Below, one piece after another: positions 39,536 to 56,377 of a stretch of 64,000 nt of DNA. The stretch is taken from NCBI RefSeq assembly GCF_900302455.1, contig NZ_ONZG01000001.1, positions 558,001 through 622,000 on the forward strand, read 5' to 3'. The notes under the pieces were generated by a model. That model was not told where the DNA came from. It saw nothing but the letters and a program-made list of their open reading frames with translations, and made no database searches. Origin of the DNA: Falsiruegeria mediterranea M17. GTDB lineage: Bacteria > Pseudomonadota > Alphaproteobacteria > Rhodobacterales > Rhodobacteraceae. The translations under genes and the position numbers were made by a program. How positions within the stretch are numbered: the first letter of the stretch is position 1; every line of letters starts with the position of its first letter.

Positions 39536-40057
39536 ATGATCAGAATTGGTATTCTAAGCCTGCTGCTGTTAATCGGCCAAATGGTTCATGCAGGCCCGGT
39601 TCGCGGCGTGTTTGACTCGATCGACGGTGGAAAACTCTCATTGAAGGAATGGCAGGGTCGGCCTGTGCTGGTGGTAAACACCGCATCTCAATGCGCCTAT
39701 ACGGACCAATACGCAGGTCTTCAAAAGCTCTATGATCGCTACCGTGATCGTGGCCTGATCGTGCTGGCAGTGCCGTCTGACGATTTCAATCAAGAGTTGG
39801 ACACCAGCGAGGATGTAAAGCAGTTCTGCGAAATGAACTACGGCCTGGATGTTCCGATGACCGACATCACATCGGTTCGCGGTTCATCGGCACATCCGTT
39901 CTATCGTCAGGTCAAAGAGGACACAGGATTTGTGCCGCGATGGAACTTTAACAAAGTCTTGGTTGCACCTGATGGCTCTGTCGCCGCAACGTTTGGATCG
40001 GCGATCCGTCCCGACTCGGGCAAGATCGTCAGTGCGATCGAAGAGTTTTTGAGTTAG
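39536..40057 (+). CDS. Exported glutathione peroxidase family protein
   Basis: 173 residues from the ATG at 39536, with AGGAGG six bases upstream. A signal peptide (IRIGILSLLLLIGQMVHA) sends it to the periplasm. Active-site Cys in NTASQCAYTDQY, Gln/Trp partners near LAVPSDDFNQE and PRWNFNKVLV. In bacteria such Cys-GPx proteins usually use thioredoxin-like donors. Divergent from msrBA, so peroxide removal and methionine repair may respond together. Its stop overlaps the convergent EamA gene stop by three bases. Confidence 0.88.
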   Translation: MIRIGILSLLLLIGQMVHAGPVRGVFDSIDGGKLSLKEWQGRPVLVVNTASQCAYTDQYAGLQKLYDRYRDRGLIVLAVPSDDFNQELDTSEDVKQFCEMNYGLDVPMTDITSVRGSSAHPFYRQVKEDTGFVPRWNFNKVLVAPDGSVAATFGSAIRPDSGKIVSAIEEFLS

Positions 40058-47407: not shown

Positions 47408-47836
47408 ATGGACTATGAAACAGTAGATGCCGATGCGTTTGGACGGTCGCTGAGAGGGATCGGCCTGAACCTGTTGGTGCGGGATGTGCAGGCTGAATGC
47501 ACCTTTCTGGCGGAGGTATTCGGGATGTGCAGTCATCAGGTGACAGCGGATTTCGCCATCGTGACCTATGGCAACCAGGTGTTTCAGCTGCATAGCGATG
47601 GCACTTATCACGCGAACCCGTTGCTGAATCTTTTGCCGGAAAACCCGCCACGCGGGGCCGGATTGGAAATCCGCCTGTATGACAGCGACCCGGATGAGGC
47701 CGTGCAACGGGCCGAGGCTTTTGGGGCCACGGTTTTGCAAGTTGCAACGGACAAACCACATGGGCTGCGAGAGGCGTATATTCTGTGTGCCGATGGGTAC
47801 GCTTGGGTGCCGAGCAGACCCAAAAAGCTAGTTTGA
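47408..47836 (+). CDS. VOC (glyoxalase/bleomycin-resistance) superfamily protein
   Basis: 142 residues. Two beta-alpha-beta-beta-beta modules: LRGIGLNLLVRDVQAECTFLAEVFG and GLEIRLYDSDPDEAVQRAEAFGATVL, the layout of VOC proteins. Metal-ligand His is seen in VFQLHSDGTYH. The substrate cannot be deduced. GGGGGG-type SD precedes the ATG. The gene is followed by structured repeat copy A. Confidence 0.8.
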   Translation: MDYETVDADAFGRSLRGIGLNLLVRDVQAECTFLAEVFGMCSHQVTADFAIVTYGNQVFQLHSDGTYHANPLLNLLPENPPRGAGLEIRLYDSDPDEAVQRAEAFGATVLQVATDKPHGLREAYILCADGYAWVPSRPKKLV

Positions 47837-47848
47837 ACAATCTCCAAA

Positions 47849-47983
47849 TGGCGCGACCTTGCGGTCACGCGTCCTGCGGACGGCGGGGGGCCGGGCAGGC
47901 GCGGGCGTTGCCCGCGCCTGCCCGGCCCAACGGGAGGAGGTGGTCCGCCAGGAACATCGACAACGGGCGGGAGTGCTTGCGGA
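47849..47983. repeat. Structured extragenic element, copy A
   Basis: Three consecutive hairpins. H1: CGCGACC-TTGC-GGTC with a bulged A before CGCG. H2: CGTCC-TGC-GGACG (47870-47882). H3: a perfect 19-base-pair stem, arms 47888-47906 and 47910-47928, loop GTT. Then a conserved tail containing AACGGGAGGAG and ACGGGCGGGAGTGCT up to the LysR stop. Copy B at 55252-55389 has the same order. H3 differs at five positions between copies, each compensated in the opposite arm. It separates the convergent VOC and LysR genes. Confidence 0.85.
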
Positions 47984-48859
47984 TCAGGAAACGACTTCAG
48001 CCGCGATTTCGGATCTCAGCCAGTTGGTAAAGGCGATAGCACCGGGGTTTTCTTCCGCTTGGGGTGACAACAGCAAATAGTAAGCCTCAGGCATGACCGC
48101 GCGATGCGCAAAGGGCGCAATTAAGCGGCTCTCGCCAATCAATCCGCGTACGATCGTGTCATGTGCCAAACACAACCCTCCTCTGGCCATCGCAACCGAC
48201 AGGCTGACCATATACGTCGTGGCATATGTGATTGGCGGATTTCCCCATATTAGACCCTGATCTTCGGCCCAATTCGACCAGTTGGACAACAGGTTCGAGC
48301 AATCATAGAGCGGTTGGTCCTGCAGGTTTTCCAACGTCACAGAGTACCCCGGTGCGCACACCGGATAATAGTGATCGGTCCGCAACAGCTCGGTCCGGAC
48401 CGTGTCGGCTGGCCGCAGGGAATAGCGAATTTCAACCGCGGCGCCTTCGGCCATTTCTCGCGGCTCCCAAAGCTCGGTGAAGATGTTCAACTGAACGTCC
48501 GGATGCAGCGCGCGGAACCGGGGCAGCTTTGGCGCAAGCCAATTCACGGCAAAGGTGATGTTCGATTGCACCTGCACCGCATTCACCTGATCCCCGACCA
48601 CCGCTTGGGTCCCCCGCACCAGGGTTCGAAAAGCCTCGCGCACGACCGGCAGATAGGTGATCCCGGTTTCCGTCAGCTCCAGCGCCCGGGGACGGCGATG
48701 AAACAGCGGGCGTCCCAGGTGTCCTTCAAGCGATTTGATCTGCTGGCTGACCGCGCTTTGCGTCATGTTCAGATCGCGCGCAGCACCGGTGAACGACAGG
48801 TGGCGCGCTGCGGCCTCGAACGTGCGAAGCCAGCCCAAAGGGGGGAGGGGTTTCTGCAT
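47984..48859 (-). CDS. LysR family regulator, GcvA-like
   Basis: 291 residues from the ATG at 48859 (MQKPLPPLGWLRTFEAAARH). The winged helix LSFTGAARDLNMTQSAVSQQIKSLE closely follows the GcvA subgroup pattern, and RPLFHRRPRALELTETG confirms it. The effector domain fills residues 95-291. It is divergent from the class II aldolase that opens the six-gene oxidative operon, with a CTAAT inverted repeat 14 bases from its start, so it is the likely controller of that operon and itself. Confidence 0.92.
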   Translation of the reverse strand: MQKPLPPLGWLRTFEAAARHLSFTGAARDLNMTQSAVSQQIKSLEGHLGRPLFHRRPRALELTETGITYLPVVREAFRTLVRGTQAVVGDQVNAVQVQSNITFAVNWLAPKLPRFRALHPDVQLNIFTELWEPREMAEGAAVEIRYSLRPADTVRTELLRTDHYYPVCAPGYSVTLENLQDQPLYDCSNLLSNWSNWAEDQGLIWGNPPITYATTYMVSLSVAMARGGLCLAHDTIVRGLIGESRLIAPFAHRAVMPEAYYLLLSPQAEENPGAIAFTNWLRSEIAAEVVS

Positions 48860-48872
48860 ATGTATAACTCTG

Positions 48873-48891
48873 TCATTAGTAACGCTAATGA
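48873..48891. promoter_or_regulatory. LysR operator candidate with CTAAT half-sites (1)
   Basis: TCATTAG-TAACG-CTAATGA, seven-base arms and a five-base spacer. It contains T-N11-A and the CTAAT sequence known for GcvA binding. It lies in the divergent space, 95 bases before the aldolase ATG. Confidence 0.6.
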
Positions 48892-48985
48892 GATAGCTTC
48901 GTTTTTTTCGTTGGTCAAATGCAAGTCCGGGATGCAGGTTCTTGATCACCTAGGGAAACCGCCTCGGCATCAGGGAGAATCGGCG

Positions 48986-49741
48986 ATGAGCGTGACAAAT
49001 CTGCGACCCAATATGGATCACTGGTCCGAGCGGGTTGATATGGCGGCGGCCTTTCGCTGGACCGTCAAACTGAACATGCACGAGGCGGTGGCGAACCACT
49101 TCAGCCTGGCCGTGAACGACGACGGCACGCAGTTCCTGATGAACCCGAACCAGATGCACTTCAGTCGTGTGAAGGCATCGAACCTGTTGCTGCTGGATGC
49201 AAATGATCCGAACACAATGGACATGCCAGGCGCGCCGGACCCGACTGCTTGGGGCCTGCACGGTTCGATCCACCGTCACTGCCCGCATGCGCGTTGTGTG
49301 ATGCACGTGCATTCGATCCACGCCACCGTTCTGGCCTCGTTGGCGGACAGCAACATCCTCCCGATCGATCAGAACACCGCCACCTTCTACAATCGCTACG
49401 TGATTGATGACGAGTTCGGCGGGCTGGCTTTTGAGAGCGAAGGTGAGCGCTGCGCCACAATGCTGAACGACCCCAAGAAAAAGGTCATGATCATGGGCAA
49501 CCATGGGGTTCTGGTGATTGGCAGTGACGCGGCGGACGCGTTCAACCGGCTCTACTATTTTGAGCGCGCGGCCGAGACCTATATCCGAGCCTTGCAAACC
49601 GGCCAAAAGCTGCGGGTGCTCAGCGACGAGATCGCCGAGAAAACCGCGCAAGAGCTTGAGGATTATCCAAGCCAGGCCGAAGCGCACATGCGCGAAATGA
49701 AAGCGATCCTGGACGCAGAAGGGTCTGACTACGCGAGCTAA
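48986..49741 (+). CDS. Class II aldolase/adducin family protein (second copy)
   Basis: 251 residues from the ATG at 48986. Metal-site pair in RCVMHVHSIHATV and third His in IMGNHGVLVIG. The acid/base Glu position seems to be Ala (DPTAWGLHGS), as in the copy at 37683. The N-terminal MDHWSERVDMAAAFRWTVKLNMHE-type helix and NHFSLAVND match family members acting on small hydroxy-acids or of unknown activity. It opens the six-gene operon; the Rieske oxygenase gene follows after 34 bases. Confidence 0.87.
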   Translation: MSVTNLRPNMDHWSERVDMAAAFRWTVKLNMHEAVANHFSLAVNDDGTQFLMNPNQMHFSRVKASNLLLLDANDPNTMDMPGAPDPTAWGLHGSIHRHCPHARCVMHVHSIHATVLASLADSNILPIDQNTATFYNRYVIDDEFGGLAFESEGERCATMLNDPKKKVMIMGNHGVLVIGSDAADAFNRLYYFERAAETYIRALQTGQKLRVLSDEIAEKTAQELEDYPSQAEAHMREMKAILDAEGSDYAS

Positions 49742-49775
49742 GCGGCGTTAGCCGCCAAGCCAGAAAGGACATCCC

Positions 49776-50894
49776 ATGTTGGATACCGCCAACCCCCGGG
49801 CGCGCACCCTCGCCGCCCGATACTATACGTCTGTCCAATCGCTTGAAGCTGACCGTGAACTAGTGTTGAGCAGCTGGCAGTTGGCTGGGCACGAAACGCA
49901 GCTGTCAGAGCCGGGCGCTTACATAACGTTGTCGCTGTTTGACCAGAACATCTTTCTGGTGCGCGACCGCGAGGGTGAGGTACGCGCGTTCTACAACGTC
50001 TGTCCGCATCGGGGGCATCAACTGGTCGAGGGGAACGGGAAAAAGGCGGTTCTGACCTGTCCCTATCATGCATGGACATTCGGGTTGGATGGCAACCTGC
50101 GCGGGATGCCCAAACGGGATGGAACAGATGCTCCGGCGCGGTCTGAAGTCTGTTTATCGCATGTTAGGGTCGAATCATTGGCCGGATTCCTGTTTGTGAA
50201 CCTGGACGATGACGCGCCCAGCCTGGCCGAGTTTGCTCCGGGTCTTGATGCGCAGATGTTGGACCGCATCCCGGAACTGCCTACGCTGGTGATCGAGGGT
50301 GACAGCGCCTACGGCCACACCTACACCTGCAAATCGAACTGGAAAGTGATGCTGGATAACTATCTTGAATGTCACCACTGCGGCCCGGCGCATCATTCGT
50401 TTGACGACATGATGAACATCGCCGAGAACCGGTTTGAACTGTACCAAAACTACACCTATCAACATGCACCCACGGCCCGCAAAGCCCAGAATGAGGCGTT
50501 TCGGCTGGATCTGGAGCATGACGTCCTGGACGGGCAGTTCTGGTTCCTGTTCCCCAACACCATCTTTGGCCAATTCCCCGGCGCGCGCGGGTTCTATGCC
50601 TCGCGGTTTGATCCGGTCACACCGGACCTGACCGAGCGGCGTTCGATCTCGCTGATCCCGCCTGAGCCTACTGATCCTGACATGGCGGCGCGCTCCGCCG
50701 AGCGGGCAGAGTGGTCGACCAATGTCGTGTCGGTCGAGGATCGCGAGCTGTGTGAAAACGTGCAACGCGGCATGCATCAGCGGGGGTTCAAGCAGGGCTG
50801 GTACGTCACTGATCCGGACGCGCACGACATCTCGGAACATGCGATGCGTCATTTCCACGACATCTACCTGGCAGCCATGGGCGAAGAGGCATGA
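49776..50894 (+). CDS. Rieske non-heme iron oxygenase alpha subunit
   Basis: 372 residues. Rieske cluster ligands Cys76-x-His78 (NVCPHRGHQ) and Cys95-x2-His98 (TCPYHAWTF). The mononuclear iron site is NWKVMLDNYLECHHCGPAHHSF region: Glu198, His201 and His206. The DNYLEC-HH-type motif and size resemble the branch acting on quaternary amines (CntA/YeaW carnitine, GbcA glycine betaine, stachydrine demethylases), so oxygenation or demethylation of a small charged amine is the best guess. No reductase component gene lies in the window. It overlaps the next gene by four bases. Confidence 0.9.
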   Translation: MLDTANPRARTLAARYYTSVQSLEADRELVLSSWQLAGHETQLSEPGAYITLSLFDQNIFLVRDREGEVRAFYNVCPHRGHQLVEGNGKKAVLTCPYHAWTFGLDGNLRGMPKRDGTDAPARSEVCLSHVRVESLAGFLFVNLDDDAPSLAEFAPGLDAQMLDRIPELPTLVIEGDSAYGHTYTCKSNWKVMLDNYLECHHCGPAHHSFDDMMNIAENRFELYQNYTYQHAPTARKAQNEAFRLDLEHDVLDGQFWFLFPNTIFGQFPGARGFYASRFDPVTPDLTERRSISLIPPEPTDPDMAARSAERAEWSTNVVSVEDRELCENVQRGMHQRGFKQGWYVTDPDAHDISEHAMRHFHDIYLAAMGEEA

Positions 50895-51730
50895 AGAACA
50901 TCTATACCTACGGCGGCAAACCTGCCCGTCGCAACCTGACCGTCGACTGTTTGCGACGCAACAAGGCGGCTGGCAAAAAGATGACTCAGGTCTCGGCCCT
51001 CAGCGAGGATGAGGCGCGCGCCTGCGAAGAGATGGGGATCGACATGATCACCATCTCCGATCTGGACTATGATGCCGTCCGTGCGGGCGCACCGCATACC
51101 TTCATCACGTCCAGCCAGACCATGTGCCAGTATTTCGAACCGCAGGAATGCCTGACGGCGGCGTTGAAAGCGGCCGAGAAAGGCGCTGATGCGGTCTTTA
51201 CCCCGCGTGGTATGGGCATTGTCGAACTCATCGCGAACGAGGGGCTGGCGGTGCAAGGCCATGTGGGCCTGGTGCCGCGTAAATCGACCCTAACAGGGGG
51301 CTTGAAGACCTTTGGCAAGACAGCTGAGGAGGCAATGAAACTGCTCGACTGGATGCGCCGGTACGAGGATGCAGGCGCGGTAGCGGTCGAGGTTGAATGT
51401 GTCGCGGTTGAGGCGCTGCAGGCGATCAATCACAAGACCTCGCTTCTGACCCATTCGATTGGTGCGGGCACGGGCGGTGACATCATCTTTTCCTTCATGG
51501 AGGACATCTGTGGCGACGTTGAAAACCCGCCGCGTCATGCCAAAGCCTGGGGCGATGTATTGTCGATCCGCAAACAACTGGCCGCCGAGCGTGACAAGGC
51601 GTTGACCGGGTTCCGAACCGACGTGCAGTCCGGGGCGTTCCCGGATGAGGCACATACGGTTGGCATGTTGCCCGGCGAAGAGGACAAGCTGCGCGCGGCG
51701 CTCGACAAGTGGAGCACCCTTCATCAATGA
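50891..51730 (+). CDS. PanB-like (ketopantoate hydroxymethyltransferase family) protein
   Basis: 279 residues. The fold-level match to PanB is clear: VQGHVGLVPRKS (123-134), FGKTAEEAMKLL, YEDAGAVAVEVECVA (with the catalytic-type Glu169) and the phosphate-loop-like IGAGTGGD. But the metal and keto-acid site is altered: Asp57 (TISD) is kept, the second Asp segment reads ITSSQTMCQYF, and the Lys-Leu-Glu-Gly motif is replaced by VFTPRGM. It is therefore unlikely to make ketopantoate. Within this operon it may perform a C1-transfer or retro-aldol/lyase step on a keto acid. ATGA overlaps on both sides couple it to its neighbours. Confidence 0.85.
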   Translation: MKNIYTYGGKPARRNLTVDCLRRNKAAGKKMTQVSALSEDEARACEEMGIDMITISDLDYDAVRAGAPHTFITSSQTMCQYFEPQECLTAALKAAEKGADAVFTPRGMGIVELIANEGLAVQGHVGLVPRKSTLTGGLKTFGKTAEEAMKLLDWMRRYEDAGAVAVEVECVAVEALQAINHKTSLLTHSIGAGTGGDIIFSFMEDICGDVENPPRHAKAWGDVLSIRKQLAAERDKALTGFRTDVQSGAFPDEAHTVGMLPGEEDKLRAALDKWSTLHQ

Positions 51731-52860
51731 GCGTCACCCTGACAGACACCGGCCTGCGGGTCGCGTTGCCGGATGGCGAGGCATATTTCAACGCCTTCTG
51801 GCTGCGCGACAACTGCGCCAGCTCGTTCGACGCCGAGACCCGCGAGCGGGTGTTTGACATCTGCGCGTTGGATGGTGACCCGGTGATCGCCACCGCATGG
51901 GCAGACGGCGAGGCATTGGTGGTGGACTGGCAGGGCGAGGATCATCAGAGCCGCTATAGTCTGGATTGGCTGATGGGTTGCGCCAGGGGTGCGCCGCGGA
52001 CGGATCCTGCGTCCATTCCCCGTGCACTATGGCGCTCGGACAAGGCATTTAAGCGGTTTGATCGCGCTGATCTGGATCGGGACCAAATCCGTTGTGACTG
52101 GGCCCCTGCCCTGATCGAAGACGGTGTCGCCATCGTTGAGGGATTGGAAGACAGCGACCAGGCCCTGACCGATCTGGCAAACCTGTTGGGTGACGTTCGG
52201 CCGTCGGTGACAGGGTCGTACTTTGACGTGCAGGTGCATGTTGGTCCGGTAAATTTGGCCTTTACGGCTGCTGAGCTTGAGTTGCACACAGACACCCCTG
52301 CCGAGGAAACCCCGCCGGGCGTGCAGTTCCTGCATTGCCGTGCCAACTCGGTTGAGGGCGGCGACAGCCTTTTTCTGGATGGTGCAGCTGCGGCCGAGGA
52401 TTTCCGAAAACGGTATCCTGACGAGTTTGAACTCCTCGCCACTGTGACGGCCCCTTTCTATTACGAGCATGACGCTTTTGACTGGCGCGCGCGGCAGCGG
52501 GTGATCGAGTTGGATGTGGGTGGCGCGGTCTCGGGCCTGACTGTCTCGCAGCATATGGCTGATGTGTTCGACATGCCGCAAGAGCTGCTGGACCGCTACT
52601 ATCCCGCCTTTGTCCGCTTCATGCGCTGGCTCAGACGGCCCGAATATCTGGTGCAGTTCCGCCTGAACGCGGGCGAATGCATCATCTTTGACAATCATCG
52701 CATCGTGCATGGCCGCGCGGCCTATTCCGCAGACAGCGGCCAACGCCACCTTCGCGGTTGCTACATCGACCGGGGCGAGCTGCGCTCAACCTATCGCACC
52801 CTCTACCGCAAGACCGGCCAGACGGCCCCCAGCCAGGGACAATCAGCGCGCCATGAATGA
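51727..52860 (+). CDS. TauD/gamma-butyrobetaine-hydroxylase-like 2-oxoglutarate dioxygenase
   Basis: 377 residues from the ATG at 51727 overlapping the previous stop. The N-terminal 90 residues resemble the DUF971-type domain of gamma-butyrobetaine and trimethyllysine hydroxylases (FNAFWLRDNCAS...VFDICALDG). The TauD domain gives the Fe triad His187-x-Asp189 (LELHTDTP) and His328 (NHRIVHGR), plus the 2-oxoglutarate Arg in RHLRGCY. LRDNC is typical of BBOX1-like enzymes, pointing to a betaine or carnitine-type substrate. It would hydroxylate an aliphatic carbon. Eight-base overlap with the M24 gene. Confidence 0.92.
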   Translation: MSVTLTDTGLRVALPDGEAYFNAFWLRDNCASSFDAETRERVFDICALDGDPVIATAWADGEALVVDWQGEDHQSRYSLDWLMGCARGAPRTDPASIPRALWRSDKAFKRFDRADLDRDQIRCDWAPALIEDGVAIVEGLEDSDQALTDLANLLGDVRPSVTGSYFDVQVHVGPVNLAFTAAELELHTDTPAEETPPGVQFLHCRANSVEGGDSLFLDGAAAAEDFRKRYPDEFELLATVTAPFYYEHDAFDWRARQRVIELDVGGAVSGLTVSQHMADVFDMPQELLDRYYPAFVRFMRWLRRPEYLVQFRLNAGECIIFDNHRIVHGRAAYSADSGQRHLRGCYIDRGELRSTYRTLYRKTGQTAPSQGQSARHE

Positions 52861-54151
52861 CGCCACAGACTATACGCGTGCCTTTGCTGCCAAGCCGCAG
52901 CCTCTGACGCTGGAACAGGCCGCGTGGAAAACGCCGCCCATGCAGCTGACGGATACCGAAGGCATGATCGACGTGCCCCGGATGCGGCGGTATCGCCAGA
53001 ACCGGCTGCGTGAGCAGATGAAAGCACATGGGCTAGCGGCGGTGATCCTGACCGATCCGCTGTCGATCCGCTATGCGACGGGGGTGCGCAACTGCACGCT
53101 GTTTCAGATGCATATTCATGCGGGCTATTTGTTTTTGCCAGCCGAGGGACCAGTGATTTATTTCGACAGCGAGCCGGGTCGGGAAACCGGCGTGCAGCTG
53201 GAAACCATCGACGAGATCCGCGATGACCTGCTGCCGCTGTCCTATATGTTCGCGGGCTATCGGCATCAGGAGTGGTGCACCAAATGGGCCGCGCAGATGA
53301 AGGCACTGGTGGATGAACACTGCGGCGGCGAGACCCGAGTGGGTGTCGAACGCACCGCGCCCCTGCCTCACATGGCGCTGGAACAGGCCGGTTTGACCCT
53401 GGTTGATGCGGGAGAGGCTTTGGCCCACGCCCGAAAAATCAAAAGCCCCGAAGAAATCCTGTGCATGAACCAGACGATTGCGGTGGCCGAGGATGGCATG
53501 ACCCGGATGCGGAATAATCTGGTTAACGGCATCACCGAGCAGGAACTGTGGTCCCACATGTGGGCCGCCAATATCGAAGGCGGCGGAGAATGGATCGACT
53601 ATCGCCTGCTGGCGTCTGGTGAACGCACCAACCCCTGGCAGCAAGAGGCCAGCAGCCGCACCATTCGTGCAGGTGATCTGGTGGTGTTCGACTGCGGGAT
53701 GGTCGGTCCGTGGAGCTATGGCGCTGACATCAGCCGCGCTTATCATTGTGGGCCTGGACGTCCGACGGAGGAGCAGTGCCGCCTATATCAATATGCCCAC
53801 AACGAGGTGATGCATAACGGCGCTCTGCTGCGTCCCGGTATCTCGTTCACCGAGCTGATTGCGCAGCGTTATCGCCAGCCCGACGGATACAACGACCAGA
53901 CCTATCCCTGCATGATGCATGGGCTAGGCATGGCCGACGAATACCCGGTGATCTACTACCCCGCGGACGCGCAGTTCCAATATGACGGTGAACTGGAGTC
54001 CGGAATGGTCATCTGCGTCGAAAGCTATGTCGGCAAGCTTGGCGGATACGAAGGCGTCAAGCTGGAAGACCAATACCTCATCACTGACACCGGCGCGATC
54101 TGTCTTTCGCGCTACCCGTTCGAAGACGCGCTTCTATCGCGCGAAATCTGA
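52853..54151 (+). CDS. M24 metallopeptidase-fold protein, DddP-like
   Basis: 432 residues from the ATG at 52853. The creatinase N-domain is followed by the pita-bread domain. Metal ligands by alignment from memory with DddP (M24-type DMSP lyase): Asp280 (VVFDCG), Asp292 (ADISRAY), His356 (MMHGLG), Glu390 (ICVESY), Glu405 (KLEDQ). The extra DddP metal Asp two residues after the first is Gly282 here, while the Asp proposed as catalytic base in DddP is matched by Asp362 (GMADEYP). Shared text such as GGGEWI-RLLASG-RTNPW shows the relationship. Possible activities are C-N or C-S bond cleavage; peptidase activity is less likely. Confidence 0.85.
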   Translation: MNDATDYTRAFAAKPQPLTLEQAAWKTPPMQLTDTEGMIDVPRMRRYRQNRLREQMKAHGLAAVILTDPLSIRYATGVRNCTLFQMHIHAGYLFLPAEGPVIYFDSEPGRETGVQLETIDEIRDDLLPLSYMFAGYRHQEWCTKWAAQMKALVDEHCGGETRVGVERTAPLPHMALEQAGLTLVDAGEALAHARKIKSPEEILCMNQTIAVAEDGMTRMRNNLVNGITEQELWSHMWAANIEGGGEWIDYRLLASGERTNPWQQEASSRTIRAGDLVVFDCGMVGPWSYGADISRAYHCGPGRPTEEQCRLYQYAHNEVMHNGALLRPGISFTELIAQRYRQPDGYNDQTYPCMMHGLGMADEYPVIYYPADAQFQYDGELESGMVICVESYVGKLGGYEGVKLEDQYLITDTGAICLSRYPFEDALLSREI

Positions 54152-54178
54152 TGTTTTGGCCAAAGAGGAGATGCCAAA

Positions 54179-55228
54179 ATGACCGATACGACACCCAGCC
54201 TGGACCAGATGGCTAACACCGCCCCGACCCCCGCCCCCTTATCGGGCGAACAGATGGAGGATATGAGCCGAGAGTGGAACTATCACCCGGATCTGCCGTT
54301 GCAGAACCCATCCATCTTTCAATGGCCGCCCAACCCGGCCTTTCTGATCGGTTGGCTTGCGCGCAACTGGCTGACGCTCAGCGAGCGGGTGATGATGGTG
54401 ATCCTGGCCGTGGCGTTGTGGTATTTCTTCTACCCCTCGCTGGAAACCGCGCAGAGCTTTGCCTTTGGCTGGATTGCCCAGATCTATGTCATCAACTTCG
54501 TGATGATCTTTGCCGTGGCTGGCGGCCTGCACTGGTATTTCTACATCCGCAAAGGGCAGGGCAAGAAGCTCAAGTTTGAGCGCAGGGATCAGGGTAAGAA
54601 CAACAAGCTGTGGGATTTCAGCGATCAGGTGAAGGACAATATGTTCTGGTCGCTGGGGTCCGGCGTGTTCCAACTGACCGGGTTTCAGGTGGTCACCATG
54701 TGGTTGATGGCAAACGGCTATGCGCCCGTGATCACTTTTGCAGAAAACCCGGTGTGGTTCCTGGCCTGGCTGGTGATCATCCCGATGTGGTCCGCGTTCC
54801 ACTTCTACTGGGTGCACCGCCTGTTGCATCAGCCGTTCCTGTACAAGCGGGTTCACAGCCTGCACCACCGCAATGTTAACATTGGCCCGTGGTCGGGGTT
54901 CTCAATGCACCCGGTCGAACACTTTATCTATCTGACCACGCTGTGCGTTCACTGGGTTGTCGCGTCGCACCCGATCCATCTGTATTTCCACATCGTGTTC
55001 CAGGGGCCTGGCGCGGCGATGAGTCATACCGGTTACGAGGATCTTCTGATCAAGGACAAGCGCAAGCTGGTCTTGGGCACCTTTTATCACCAGCTGCATC
55101 ACCGGTACTACGAGTGCAACTACGGCAATCAGGAGATGCCCTGGGATCGGTGGTTTGGCACGTTCCACGATGGTTCGCCCGAGGCGACGGCAGAGACCCG
55201 AGCGCGCAAAAAGCGGATGTTCGGCTAA
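54179..55228 (+). CDS. Sterol desaturase/fatty-acid hydroxylase superfamily membrane protein
   Basis: 349 residues. Four or so membrane segments and the complete eight-histidine di-iron signature: HFYWVHRLLH, HSLHHRN and HQLHHRYYECNYG. GAGGAG precedes the ATG by eight bases and the gene lies 27 bases after the M24 gene. Family members insert oxygen into lipids, carotenoids or small membrane-facing substrates. It is the third oxygen-using enzyme in the operon. The polar 50-residue N-terminus is cytoplasmic. The structured repeat copy B follows. Confidence 0.9.
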   Translation: MTDTTPSLDQMANTAPTPAPLSGEQMEDMSREWNYHPDLPLQNPSIFQWPPNPAFLIGWLARNWLTLSERVMMVILAVALWYFFYPSLETAQSFAFGWIAQIYVINFVMIFAVAGGLHWYFYIRKGQGKKLKFERRDQGKNNKLWDFSDQVKDNMFWSLGSGVFQLTGFQVVTMWLMANGYAPVITFAENPVWFLAWLVIIPMWSAFHFYWVHRLLHQPFLYKRVHSLHHRNVNIGPWSGFSMHPVEHFIYLTTLCVHWVVASHPIHLYFHIVFQGPGAAMSHTGYEDLLIKDKRKLVLGTFYHQLHHRYYECNYGNQEMPWDRWFGTFHDGSPEATAETRARKKRMFG

Positions 55229-55251
55229 GTTACCCCTGATACGCGTCCAAA

Positions 55252-55389
55252 CTGCGCGGCCTGTCGGCCTTGCGTCCTGCGGACGGCAGGGGGGCCAGGC
55301 TCACACGGGCAAAGCCCGTGTGAGCCTGGCCCAACGGGAGGAGATGTCCCGCAAGGGGCATTGACGACGGGCGGGAGTGCTCCGTGGCT
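55252..55389. repeat. Structured extragenic element, copy B
   Basis: Same architecture as copy A. H1 GCGC-GGCC-TGTC-GGCC; H2 CGTCC-TGC-GGACG at 55273-55285; H3 19-base-pair stem with arms 55292-55310 and 55314-55332, loop AAA. The tail contains AACGGGAGGAG and ACGGGCGGGAGTGCT, ending at the stop of the second LysR gene. Here H3 arms differ from copy A at positions 6, 10, 11, 12 and 14, with matching changes in the other arm. It separates the convergent hydroxylase and LysR genes. Confidence 0.85.
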
Positions 55390-56265
55390 CTAGTCCAATG
55401 CCGAGGCTGCTGCGATGTCGATGAAGGCCGCCACCAATCGCATGCGTGCGCGGTCCTTGGGGGCGACGATGGCGGTTTCGTGGGTCTTTGACATCTCGAC
55501 GATCGGGACCTCGACCAATCCGCGCGAGATCAACCCGCTGTTGCTCAGGAAAATGGCGATGCCTGCGCCTTGCAGCACGGCTTCGCACATCAGCGGAAAG
55601 GTGGTCATACGGATGGTCCGGGGGAACACGACACCGGATCGGTCTTGGGCCTCGCGCACCACCCGCTCGGTCAACGACCCCGTTTCGGGCAGGATGACCG
55701 TCTCAGCAGCCAATTCGGTCAGGGACAGAGCCTCACGCGCTGCAAAATGCGAATCCGGCAGTAGGTAGGCCGCATACCGCACCTTTTGCACCACCACCTT
55801 GTCCCAATCATCAGCTTGTGGCGGATCCGTGATGAGCCCAACGTCCGCCCGCCGTTCGCGCAGCAGCCGCGAGGCCGTAGTCCAGGCGTGCAACGCAAAG
55901 TCGATTTCGACGTTTGGATGGGCGCGGTGAAACTGGCTGATCGCCTTGAGGGCGGGCAGAGGGGCGTTTGCGATGACCTTGATGTGCCCGCGCGCCATCG
56001 CTTCGAACCCCTGCAACCGTTCCGAGATCGTCCCTTCGAGCGCCACCAGCCGGTCGGCCAGATCATAGAATTCCCGCCCCGTGCGGGTCAGCGATACCCC
56101 GTCCCGGCTGCGCAGCAAAAGCGGTGTGCCCACCTGCTTTTCCAACTTGGCCACATGCTGTGTCACTGCCGATTGCGTCACGCCCAACCGTGTTGCCGCG
56201 GCCGAAAAGCTACCTTCACGCACGACATAGGCAAACGCGACGAATTGATGGTGATTGGCGCGCAT
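55390..56265 (-). CDS. LysR family transcriptional regulator
   Basis: 291 residues from the ATG at 56265 with AAGGGGA five bases upstream. Helix-turn-helix GSFSAAATRLGVTQSAVTQHVAKLEKQVG (centre AAATRLGVTQSAVTQHV). The effector domain begins near residue 90 (GHIKVIANAPLPAL). It is divergent from the Ugp-like ABC transporter operon and has an ATTAG/CTAAT repeat 35 bases from its start, so it probably regulates that operon. Confidence 0.92.
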   Translation of the reverse strand: MRANHHQFVAFAYVVREGSFSAAATRLGVTQSAVTQHVAKLEKQVGTPLLLRSRDGVSLTRTGREFYDLADRLVALEGTISERLQGFEAMARGHIKVIANAPLPALKAISQFHRAHPNVEIDFALHAWTTASRLLRERRADVGLITDPPQADDWDKVVVQKVRYAAYLLPDSHFAAREALSLTELAAETVILPETGSLTERVVREAQDRSGVVFPRTIRMTTFPLMCEAVLQGAGIAIFLSNSGLISRGLVEVPIVEMSKTHETAIVAPKDRARMRLVAAFIDIAAASALD

Positions 56266-56299
56266 TGAAGTCCCCTTTTCGGAACCAGCCTTATTGACC

Positions 56300-56314
56300 A
56301 TTAGTCTCACTAAT
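56300..56314. promoter_or_regulatory. LysR operator candidate with CTAAT half-sites (2)
   Basis: ATTAG-TCTCA-CTAAT, five-base arms, five-base spacer, with T-N11-A. Same arms and spacing as the site at 48873-48891. It lies 64 bases before the GTG of the ATPase gene. Confidence 0.55.
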
Positions 56315-56377
56315 ATGACGTCACAAAAGTGAAGGCCCGTTTGACTAAACAACCCTCAAACAACTGGGGGAATCACA

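What the first reader, a model, noticed from the sequence alone, without database searches (positions are those of the whole stretch)
47849..55389. Two copies of a structured extragenic element with a covarying 19-bp hairpin
Elements at 47849-47983 and 55252-55389 share H1, H2 and H3 hairpins in order and conserved linkers (CGTCCTGCGGACGGC, CCCAACGGGAGGAG, ACGGGCGGGAGTGCT). H3 is a perfect 19-bp stem with a 3-base loop in both. Five of 19 pairs differ (positions 6, 10, 11, 12, 14) and all five are compensated, while loops differ freely (GTT, AAA). H1 also changes as GACC/GGTC to GGCC/GGCC. Compensated changes in only two copies are strong evidence that pairing is selected or mechanistically maintained. 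Both copies lie between a plus-strand gene and the 3' end of a LysR gene. It could be a REP-like element, a folded 3' RNA, or a mobile element end.
Basis: seen in the sequence. Interest (0 to 1): 0.78.

Follow-up and report, generated by a model that had tools for sequence, protein, structure and literature searches.

The report
Repeated palindromic spacers between convergent genes
The two hairpin-rich stretches belong to a large family of roughly 130-230-letter repeats in Rhodobacteraceae that often fill the gap between genes pointing at each other; their stems keep pairing while their letters change, and they may handle the 3' ends of both neighbouring genes.

Summary
The host genome holds at least 136 copies of the shared 3' module.

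Each copy is a mosaic: a conserved 3' module (CCCAACGGGAGGAG, hairpin H4, ACGACGGGCGGGAG) joined to one of several 5' modules. In the window copies that is H1-H2-H3; more often it is a diverged inverted copy of the 3' module.

In the 70 of 130 convergent copies with a recognisable left end, the element reaches almost from stop to stop (medians 6-18 nt). At 10 of 10 sites with both flanks matched, a related species has it in the same place. H3 has compensated changes at 8 of 19 pairs, H4 at 5 of 7.

No Y1 transposase, no T-tract, no Rfam family. Closest kin are REP/BIME repeats, especially the RAYT-less CGTC class, but this family is longer and composite.

Most likely role: a bidirectional 3'-end element. 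That step is inferred; my test for replacement of ordinary terminators was negative, and a DNA-level role or a fossil mobile element is not excluded.

The parts
47849..47983 (+). element copy 1 (type A: H1-H2-H3-core-H4-second linker)
   Evidence: lies between stops at 47836 (+) and 47984 (-)
47855..47866 (+). copy 1 H1 GACC-TTGC-GGTC
47870..47882 (+). copy 1 H2 CGTCC-TGC-GGACG, nearly invariant in the family
47888..47928 (+). copy 1 H3, perfect 19-bp stem, loop GTT
47926..47939 (+). copy 1 conserved linker CCCAACGGGAGGAG (its CCC is the foot of H3)
47940..47957 (+). copy 1 H4 GTGGTCC-GCCA-GGAACAT (one G.A mismatch)
47963..47977 (+). copy 1 second linker ACGGGCGGGAGTGCT
55252..55389 (+). element copy 2 (type A)
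   Evidence: lies between stops at 55228 (+) and 55390 (-)
55258..55269 (+). copy 2 H1 GGCC-TGTC-GGCC
55273..55285 (+). copy 2 H2
55292..55332 (+). copy 2 H3, perfect 19-bp stem, loop AAA
55330..55343 (+). copy 2 conserved linker CCCAACGGGAGGAG
55344..55361 (+). copy 2 H4 ATGTCCC-GCAA-GGGGCAT
55367..55381 (+). copy 2 second linker ACGGGCGGGAGTGCT
47408..47836 (+). upstream gene of copy 1, glyoxalase-like (Pfam match 21.3 bits, under its cut-off of 23.6)
47984..48949 (-). convergent LysR-family gene of copy 1
54179..55228 (+). upstream gene of copy 2, fatty acid hydroxylase family
55390..56352 (-). convergent LysR-family gene of copy 2

Best explanation
Shown: the two stretches are members of a composite, palindrome-rich repeat family of Rhodobacteraceae that prefers the spacer between convergent genes and often fills it almost stop to stop, is kept at orthologous sites and keeps its stems paired while their letters change. 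Inferred: it works as a bidirectional 3'-end element. Each of the two converging transcripts runs into it soon after its stop codon, and the RNA folds into stable GC-rich hairpins separated by conserved unpaired linkers. This would mark or protect the mRNA 3' end and limit read-through into the opposite gene. On the strand that enters from the conserved module the linkers read as C-rich, YC-rich RNA around a small hairpin, which would suit Rho (recalled, not tested). The near-invariant linkers suggest a specific binding factor, not identified.
For: Position: 46 of 73 own copies convergent, 20 of 26 in 800 kb of G003 where 115 of 757 neighbour pairs are convergent, 0 of 26 divergent, 58 of 116 in other genomes with 18 undecided at edges. 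Stop to stop: type C n=50 medians 17 and 18 nt to the two stops, type A n=20 medians 10 and 6 nt; the other 60 of 130 convergent copies had no recognisable left end. Core end to convergent stop: medians 22-26 nt in three sets. Orthologous retention: 10 of 10 own loci with both flanks matched in 800 kb of G003; window copy 1 in G001, G002 and G003, copy 2 in G002 and G003. Linkers: 3 of 140 and 2 of 110 mismatches to consensus at these 10 G003 sites, flanks 74-93% identical. Stems: in 39 copies H3 98.7% and H4 98.2% of cells paired, 102 both-sided cells versus 25 in shuffles; in 54 copies H4 97.6%. G.U over A.C on the + strand 57:13. C/G 1.28 and YC 0.234 in the 70 nt after the stop when reading into the conserved side (n=114), versus 1.06 and 0.156 in convergent gaps without element (n=86).
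Against: T-tract terminators are not clearly rarer in convergent gaps with an element (24 of 117) than without (24 of 76, p 0.09), and not at all at matched gap length (15 of 94 versus 6 of 27; 20 of 79 versus 5 of 21). The + strand has no U-tract. Reading in from the 5' side is not C-rich (C/G 1.06, YC 0.167, like gaps without element), so the two directions are not alike on this measure; the C-rich result itself follows largely from the motif. Copies in '--' surroundings keep the same H4 pairing and G.U bias. The two outer ends of one element do not covary (4.22 versus 4.11 matching letters, 188 of 1000 shuffles). Some covariation measures do not exceed shuffles: further pair types in A5 (27 versus 29.2) and in A4 (15 versus 16.2), and number of double-changed pairs in A4 (5 versus 4.5, 238 of 500). 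One locus with only its right flank matched in G003 (L008) has no element there. Only 18 of 149 family genomes match at E <= 1e-6, so the family can do without it. No transcript data were seen.
Confidence: 0.45

Rival explanations
1. DNA-level BIME-like site: the duplex or a cruciform binds gyrase or a nucleoid protein and relieves the positive supercoils that build up between convergent genes.
For: Same preference for 3' ends and convergent pairs as REP/BIME repeats (PMC3733652 passages); conserved linkers that look like recognition sites; copies in '--' surroundings equally well kept; H3 almost purely Watson-Crick (798 of 817 cells in 43 copies chosen for at least 14 such pairs).
Against: H4 favours G.U over A.C 57:13 on one strand, which a duplex role would not explain; ends close to stop codons suggest a transcript-level role.
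Confidence: 0.21
2. Fossil non-autonomous mobile element (MITE or REPIN-like) that spread earlier, is tolerated mainly beyond 3' ends and has no present function.
For: Inverted paired modules like terminal inverted repeats: 36 own, 15 G003 and 36 other elements with both arms; outward-facing pairs in Tropicimonas L117 and in genome G018; patchy distribution; one possible absence in G003 (L008).
Against: 10 of 10 orthologous positions with both flanks retained and linkers at 2-3% mismatch there; no Y1 transposase; no transposase ORF seen between three outward pairs (by eye); at orthologous sites H3 pairs changed on both sides 9 times (8 if one own-lineage change is counted once) and on one side twice, in 7 comparisons. 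Site duplications were not tested systematically.
Confidence: 0.23
3. Target or sponge of the CcsR-type (CCUCCUCCC motif) small RNAs through the GGGAGGAG linker.
For: Four tandem CcsR-like genes in the genome, below the Rfam cut-off; 4 of the 13 CcsR1-model matches up to E 10 are the reverse strand of elements, one also.
Against: Complementarity stops at GGGAGGAG, 8 nt (CcsR loops read CTCCTCCCTG, the element needs CTCCTCCCGTT); the second linker does not match; purine-rich words are common.
Confidence: 0.04

Closest known systems
CGTC-tagged REP repeats (Di Nocera, De Gregorio and Rocco 2013, PMC3733652; passages read)
   Same: Mostly alphaproteobacterial, palindromic, extragenic, mainly between convergent or unidirectional ORFs, often inverted pairs, no dedicated transposase, G.T pairs in stems. 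H4 has a 4-nt loop and is followed on the + strand, after one base, by GACG, i.e. CGTC before the hairpin on the other strand.
   Different: Those are 20-40 bp; here about 130-230 nt composites with about 25 conserved unpaired bases, further hairpins, a stem that does not start with AT directly after the tag, and no CCA tail. Rhodobacter, Ruegeria, Silicibacter and Roseobacter have 0 occurrences in the held text; figures were not held.
BIME / REPIN (paired GTAG REPs with RAYT transposases)
   Same: Mosaic combinations of palindromic units in inverted orientation, high copy, 3' ends.
   Different: No GTAG near the feet of H3 or H4 in 39 type A rows and no Y1 transposase in the genome; positions conserved between species.
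MITEs
   Same: Inverted terminal modules, no coding capacity seen, about 190 nt (about 300-400 nt in G018).
   Different: No transposase relative found by the tests made, no empty site among 10 orthologous sites with both flanks, conserved linkers.
Bidirectional intrinsic terminators
   Same: Placed between convergent stops, GC-rich stems on both strands.
   Different: No T-tract in the element; conserved linkers and several hairpins.

Membership tests
GTAG REP / RAYT system | RAYT (Y1) transposase in the genome | tested here: not met
   PF01797: 0 matches in the genome, found in 5 of 14 control genomes
GTAG REP / RAYT system | GTAG tetranucleotide at the hairpin foot | tested here: not met
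   0 of 39 type A rows near the feet of H3 and H4; other types looked at by eye only
CGTC REP | unpaired CGTC next to the stem | tested here: inconclusive
   GACG follows H4 after one base, so CGTC precedes it on the other strand
CGTC REP | 8-9 bp stem, 4-5 nt loop | tested here: inconclusive
   7 bp (8 if the flanking G-Y is counted), loop 4
CGTC REP | CCA tail and 20-40 bp size | tested here: not met
   other side of H4 reads CTCCTCCC; type A spans 130-143 nt as cut out, type C mostly 186-230
BIME-like mosaic | combination of palindromic units in inverted orientation, extragenic, many copies | tested here: met
   2 of 116 copies in other genomes called inside genes
MITE | terminal inverted repeats | tested here: met
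   type C own, Tropicimonas, G018; not in type A
MITE | target-site duplication and empty sites | tested here: inconclusive
   0 empty sites of 10 orthologous sites with both flanks, one absence at a one-flank site; duplications not searched systematically
Intrinsic terminator | hairpin followed by a U-tract | tested here: not met
   none in the aligned modules; gaps with element not enriched for T-tract hairpins
Rho-dependent terminator | Rho-dependent 3' ends | not testable with these tools
   only C-richness measured, one direction higher, the other not
CcsR / cuckoo RNA | Rfam RF02791 match over the gathering score | tested here: not met
   elements score 20.2 bits or less against a cut-off of 65.3

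The most novel reading that the evidence does not exclude
A dedicated class of convergent-gene insulators in Rhodobacteraceae: an element with inverted modules that gives colliding transcripts defined 3' ends, recognised through the unpaired words AACGGGAGGAG and ACGACGGGCGGGAG by a factor not yet known, with stems exchanged between copies by conversion while pairing and position are kept.
Probability: 0.26. Interest if true: 0.75.

Novelty: new variant of a known kind. Interest (0 to 1): 0.52.

Why it matters
How bacteria keep converging transcripts from running into each other, and what REP-like repeats are for when no transposase maintains them, are open questions as far as I know. This family gives more than a hundred natural copies in one genome, at conserved sites where compared, with readable stems and linkers. 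Copies could be tested directly with 3'-end mapping and deletion in genetically tractable Ruegeria or Phaeobacter strains.

Tried and rejected
Rfam: nothing at gathering score in the window; 12 weak matches at E up to 5 in six loci, none at its cut-off.

RAYT repeats: rejected, no Y1 transposase.

Autonomous transposon between outward-facing cores: three candidates (L274, L275, L276); the ORFs listed look like ordinary or spurious genes, by eye only, no family search.

'Elements replace ordinary terminators': tested and not supported; a looser first test on 800 kb had looked suggestive.

Closing stem between the two outer ends: not supported by covariation.

Extra hairpin in the second linker (columns 44-57 of A4): 86.7% paired, no both-sided changes; not claimed.

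CcsR sponge: low.

Empty-site check in G008 for window copy 2: no element word found near the LysR relative, but the upstream gene is not the same, uninformative.

H4 at orthologous sites: in the fixed register only 4 of 15 comparisons have two standard stems, so H4 was not counted there.

Plasmids: window copy 2 gave no match; a type C copy gave 3 of 72,556 records, all large replicons of Ruegeria or Tritonibacter.

Literature: ten searches in the open-licence library listed no paper that I recognised as describing this family. Passages of PMC4809877, PMC3733652, PMC12306157 and PMC8632094 were seen; the other papers only as listings. Subscription papers were not searchable.

Filters that bias counts: A4 uses 54 of 73 copies (19 with another H4 form or length left out); A5 kept 39 copies with at least 14 Watson-Crick H3 pairs and dropped one below that and one duplicate; the G.U count kept H4 with at least 4 of 6 Watson-Crick pairs; own copies were chosen by an exact 14-mer. 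My gene caller missed the LysR gene beside window copy 1 and called that copy '++', so gene-context counts carry errors. In one search, 17 loci matched by the left flank only, probably because that flank still held repeat; redid it with flanks further out: 61 of 73 loci unmatched, 10 both flanks (all with element), 1 left only (element), 1 right only (no element).

Changed on checking: other-genus family genomes with matches are 6 of 33, not 7; the best explanation went from 0.48 to 0.45 because the 5'-side reading is not C-rich and one one-flank site lacks the element.
Full report
WHAT IS THERE. Window copies 1 (47849-47983) and 2 (55252-55389) align over their whole length and share H1, H2, H3 and three linkers as described. 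Both fold better than all 200 shuffles, on either strand. The linker CCCAACGGGAGGAG occurs 73 times in the 5.28-Mb genome, against none for the reversed word. A covariance model of the 62-nt 3' module (R1, from 54 of the 73 copies) finds 136 matches at E <= 0.001 among 150 scored candidates in the host genome. In a run over 61 genomes it matches 88 of 88 scored candidates in the host and in each of three same-genus genomes, 6 of 33 other-genus family genomes, and 0 of 24 genomes of other families in the class. In a broader draw 18 of 149 family genomes match at E <= 1e-6, host and one congener included. The 80 listed carry names such as Tropicibacter, Ruegeria, Leisingera, Phaeobacter, Tritonibacter, Tropicimonas, Shimia, Aliiruegeria and Rubricella, or unnamed Rhodobacteraceae, Rhodobacterales or Alphaproteobacteria.

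ANATOMY. The constant part is CCCAACGGGAGGAG, hairpin H4 (usually 7 bp, 4-nt loop; a second form GGCATC-TTT-GATGCC), then CGACGACGGGCGGGAG. The 5' part differs. By a loose classification 20 of 73 own copies are type A as in the window, 36 type C, 6 type D and 11 other. Type C carries upstream a diverged inverted copy of the 3' module (CGGGGGYGCTCCCGCGCCCG, a small hairpin, CTAACGGCCTTGGGCCGGGC), so the element is a palindrome, in own copies mostly 186-230 nt (shortest 120). A stricter scan finds both arms in 36 own, 15 G003 and 36 other elements, and the left hairpin itself varies with pairing kept (of 87: CTGAC/GTCAG 24, CTGGC/GCCAG 8, CCGAC/GTCGG 5, others singly or in small numbers). Tropicimonas locus L117 and genome G018 show outward-facing pairs of the module, about 300-400 nt in G018.

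COVARIATION. In 39 type A copies 98.4% of cells form standard pairs (shuffled 91.9), 14 pairs have changes on both sides (shuffled 9.1, 2 of 500 as high), and 102 cells are changed on both sides against 25 in shuffles (0 of 500); the number of further pair types is not above shuffles (27 versus 29.2). Per helix: H3 8 of 19 pairs, H4 5 of 7, H1 1 of 4, H2 nearly invariant. Slid registers drop to 27-46% paired. The shuffles do not allow for relatedness. Part of the H3 signal (pairs 10-12) is a block shared by the same 6-7 copies; pair 13 shows three pair types, and pairs 14-15 further changes. At orthologous sites, 7 type A comparisons, H3 differs by 9 pairs on both sides (8 if an own-lineage change is counted once) and 2 on one side; the G001 copy at the site of window copy 1 alone differs by 6 pairs, all compensated. 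In H4 G.U outnumbers A.C 57 to 13, pointing to the + strand as the one that folds, but the ratio is the same in '--' (10:2) as in '++' copies (12:2), so it is not tied to transcription of that strand.

PLACE. 46 of 73 own copies, 20 of 26 in 800 kb of G003 and 58 of 116 in other genomes (18 undecided) are called convergent. In the G003 stretch only 115 of 757 neighbouring gene pairs are convergent, and 0 of 26 elements are divergent. In convergent gaps with a recognisable left end (70 of 130) the element reaches almost from stop to stop: medians 17 and 18 nt (type C, n=50) and 10 and 6 nt (type A, n=20, ends set by fixed offsets). For the conserved side alone the core ends a median 22-26 nt from the convergent stop. 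Copies beside only one 3' end occur in both orientations at similar rates (30 '++', 36 '--' over). The caller is rough: it missed the LysR gene next to window copy 1.

INHERITANCE. Of the 73 own loci, 10 had both flanks side by side in the 800 kb of G003. All 10 have the element there, of the same broad 5' type, although much of the rest of the spacer is unrecognisable. Two more loci matched by one flank: L047 has the element, L008 has not; 61 loci had no match in this part of the genome. In L014 and L070 a 5' hairpin present in G003 is missing in the own copy. At the 10 sites the G003 linkers differ from consensus at 3 of 140 and 2 of 110 positions, while flanks are 74-93% identical. Window copy 1 is at the same place in G001, G002 and G003, copy 2 in G002 and G003. 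At these sites the family is therefore old and looks selected, not a recent invasion. Own copies were chosen for an exact linker, which raises conservation on the own side.

HOW IT MAY WORK. Each converging transcript meets the element soon after its stop codon. Reading in from the conserved side the RNA is C-rich and YC-rich (C/G 1.28, YC 0.234, versus 1.06 and 0.156 without element), then hairpin H4, another C-rich linker and a long GC-rich stem. Reading in from the other side it is not (C/G 1.06, YC 0.167). A two-sided 3'-end element could look like this, but it is an inference: no transcript data were available, T-tract terminators are not significantly depleted in gaps with elements (24 of 117 versus 24 of 76, p 0.09; no difference at matched length), and the linkers seem too constant for Rho alone, so a specific factor is suspected.

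KNOWN KINDS. By behaviour it resembles REP/BIME repeats, and most the RAYT-less CGTC class of alphaproteobacteria (PMC3733652, passages seen). It fails the tests for GTAG/RAYT repeats and the size and tail of CGTC repeats. I therefore call it a new, composite variant of that kind and not a member of either class. None of the ten searches named under Tried and rejected listed a paper that I recognised as describing it.

Noticed in passing
G000:C16:225320-225736 (L232): Four tandem CcsR-like small RNA genes with CTCCTCCC loops, all below the Rfam gathering score for RF02791.
   Followed up: partly
G018: L279-L284, L267: In another genus of the family the modules form the ends of a repeated element of about 300-400 nt with shared interior words; several matches lie within 300 nt of a contig start.
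   Followed up: partly
L007, L014, L070: Type A-like copies that have lost H3 while keeping the 3' module.
   Followed up: no
L048 and its G003 site: A classical two-sided T-tract terminator sits beyond the element in both species, so the two can coexist.
   Followed up: no
G000 contigs: Copy density is uneven: 2 matches on the 310-kb contig C19, 11 on the 208-kb contig C29; replicon type not determined.
   Followed up: no
L294 (Ruegeria sp. TM1040 megaplasmid, record 39541-39619): One of three plasmid records with a match; it lies between two genes of the same direction (aspartate carbamoyltransferase and YqgE).
   Followed up: partly
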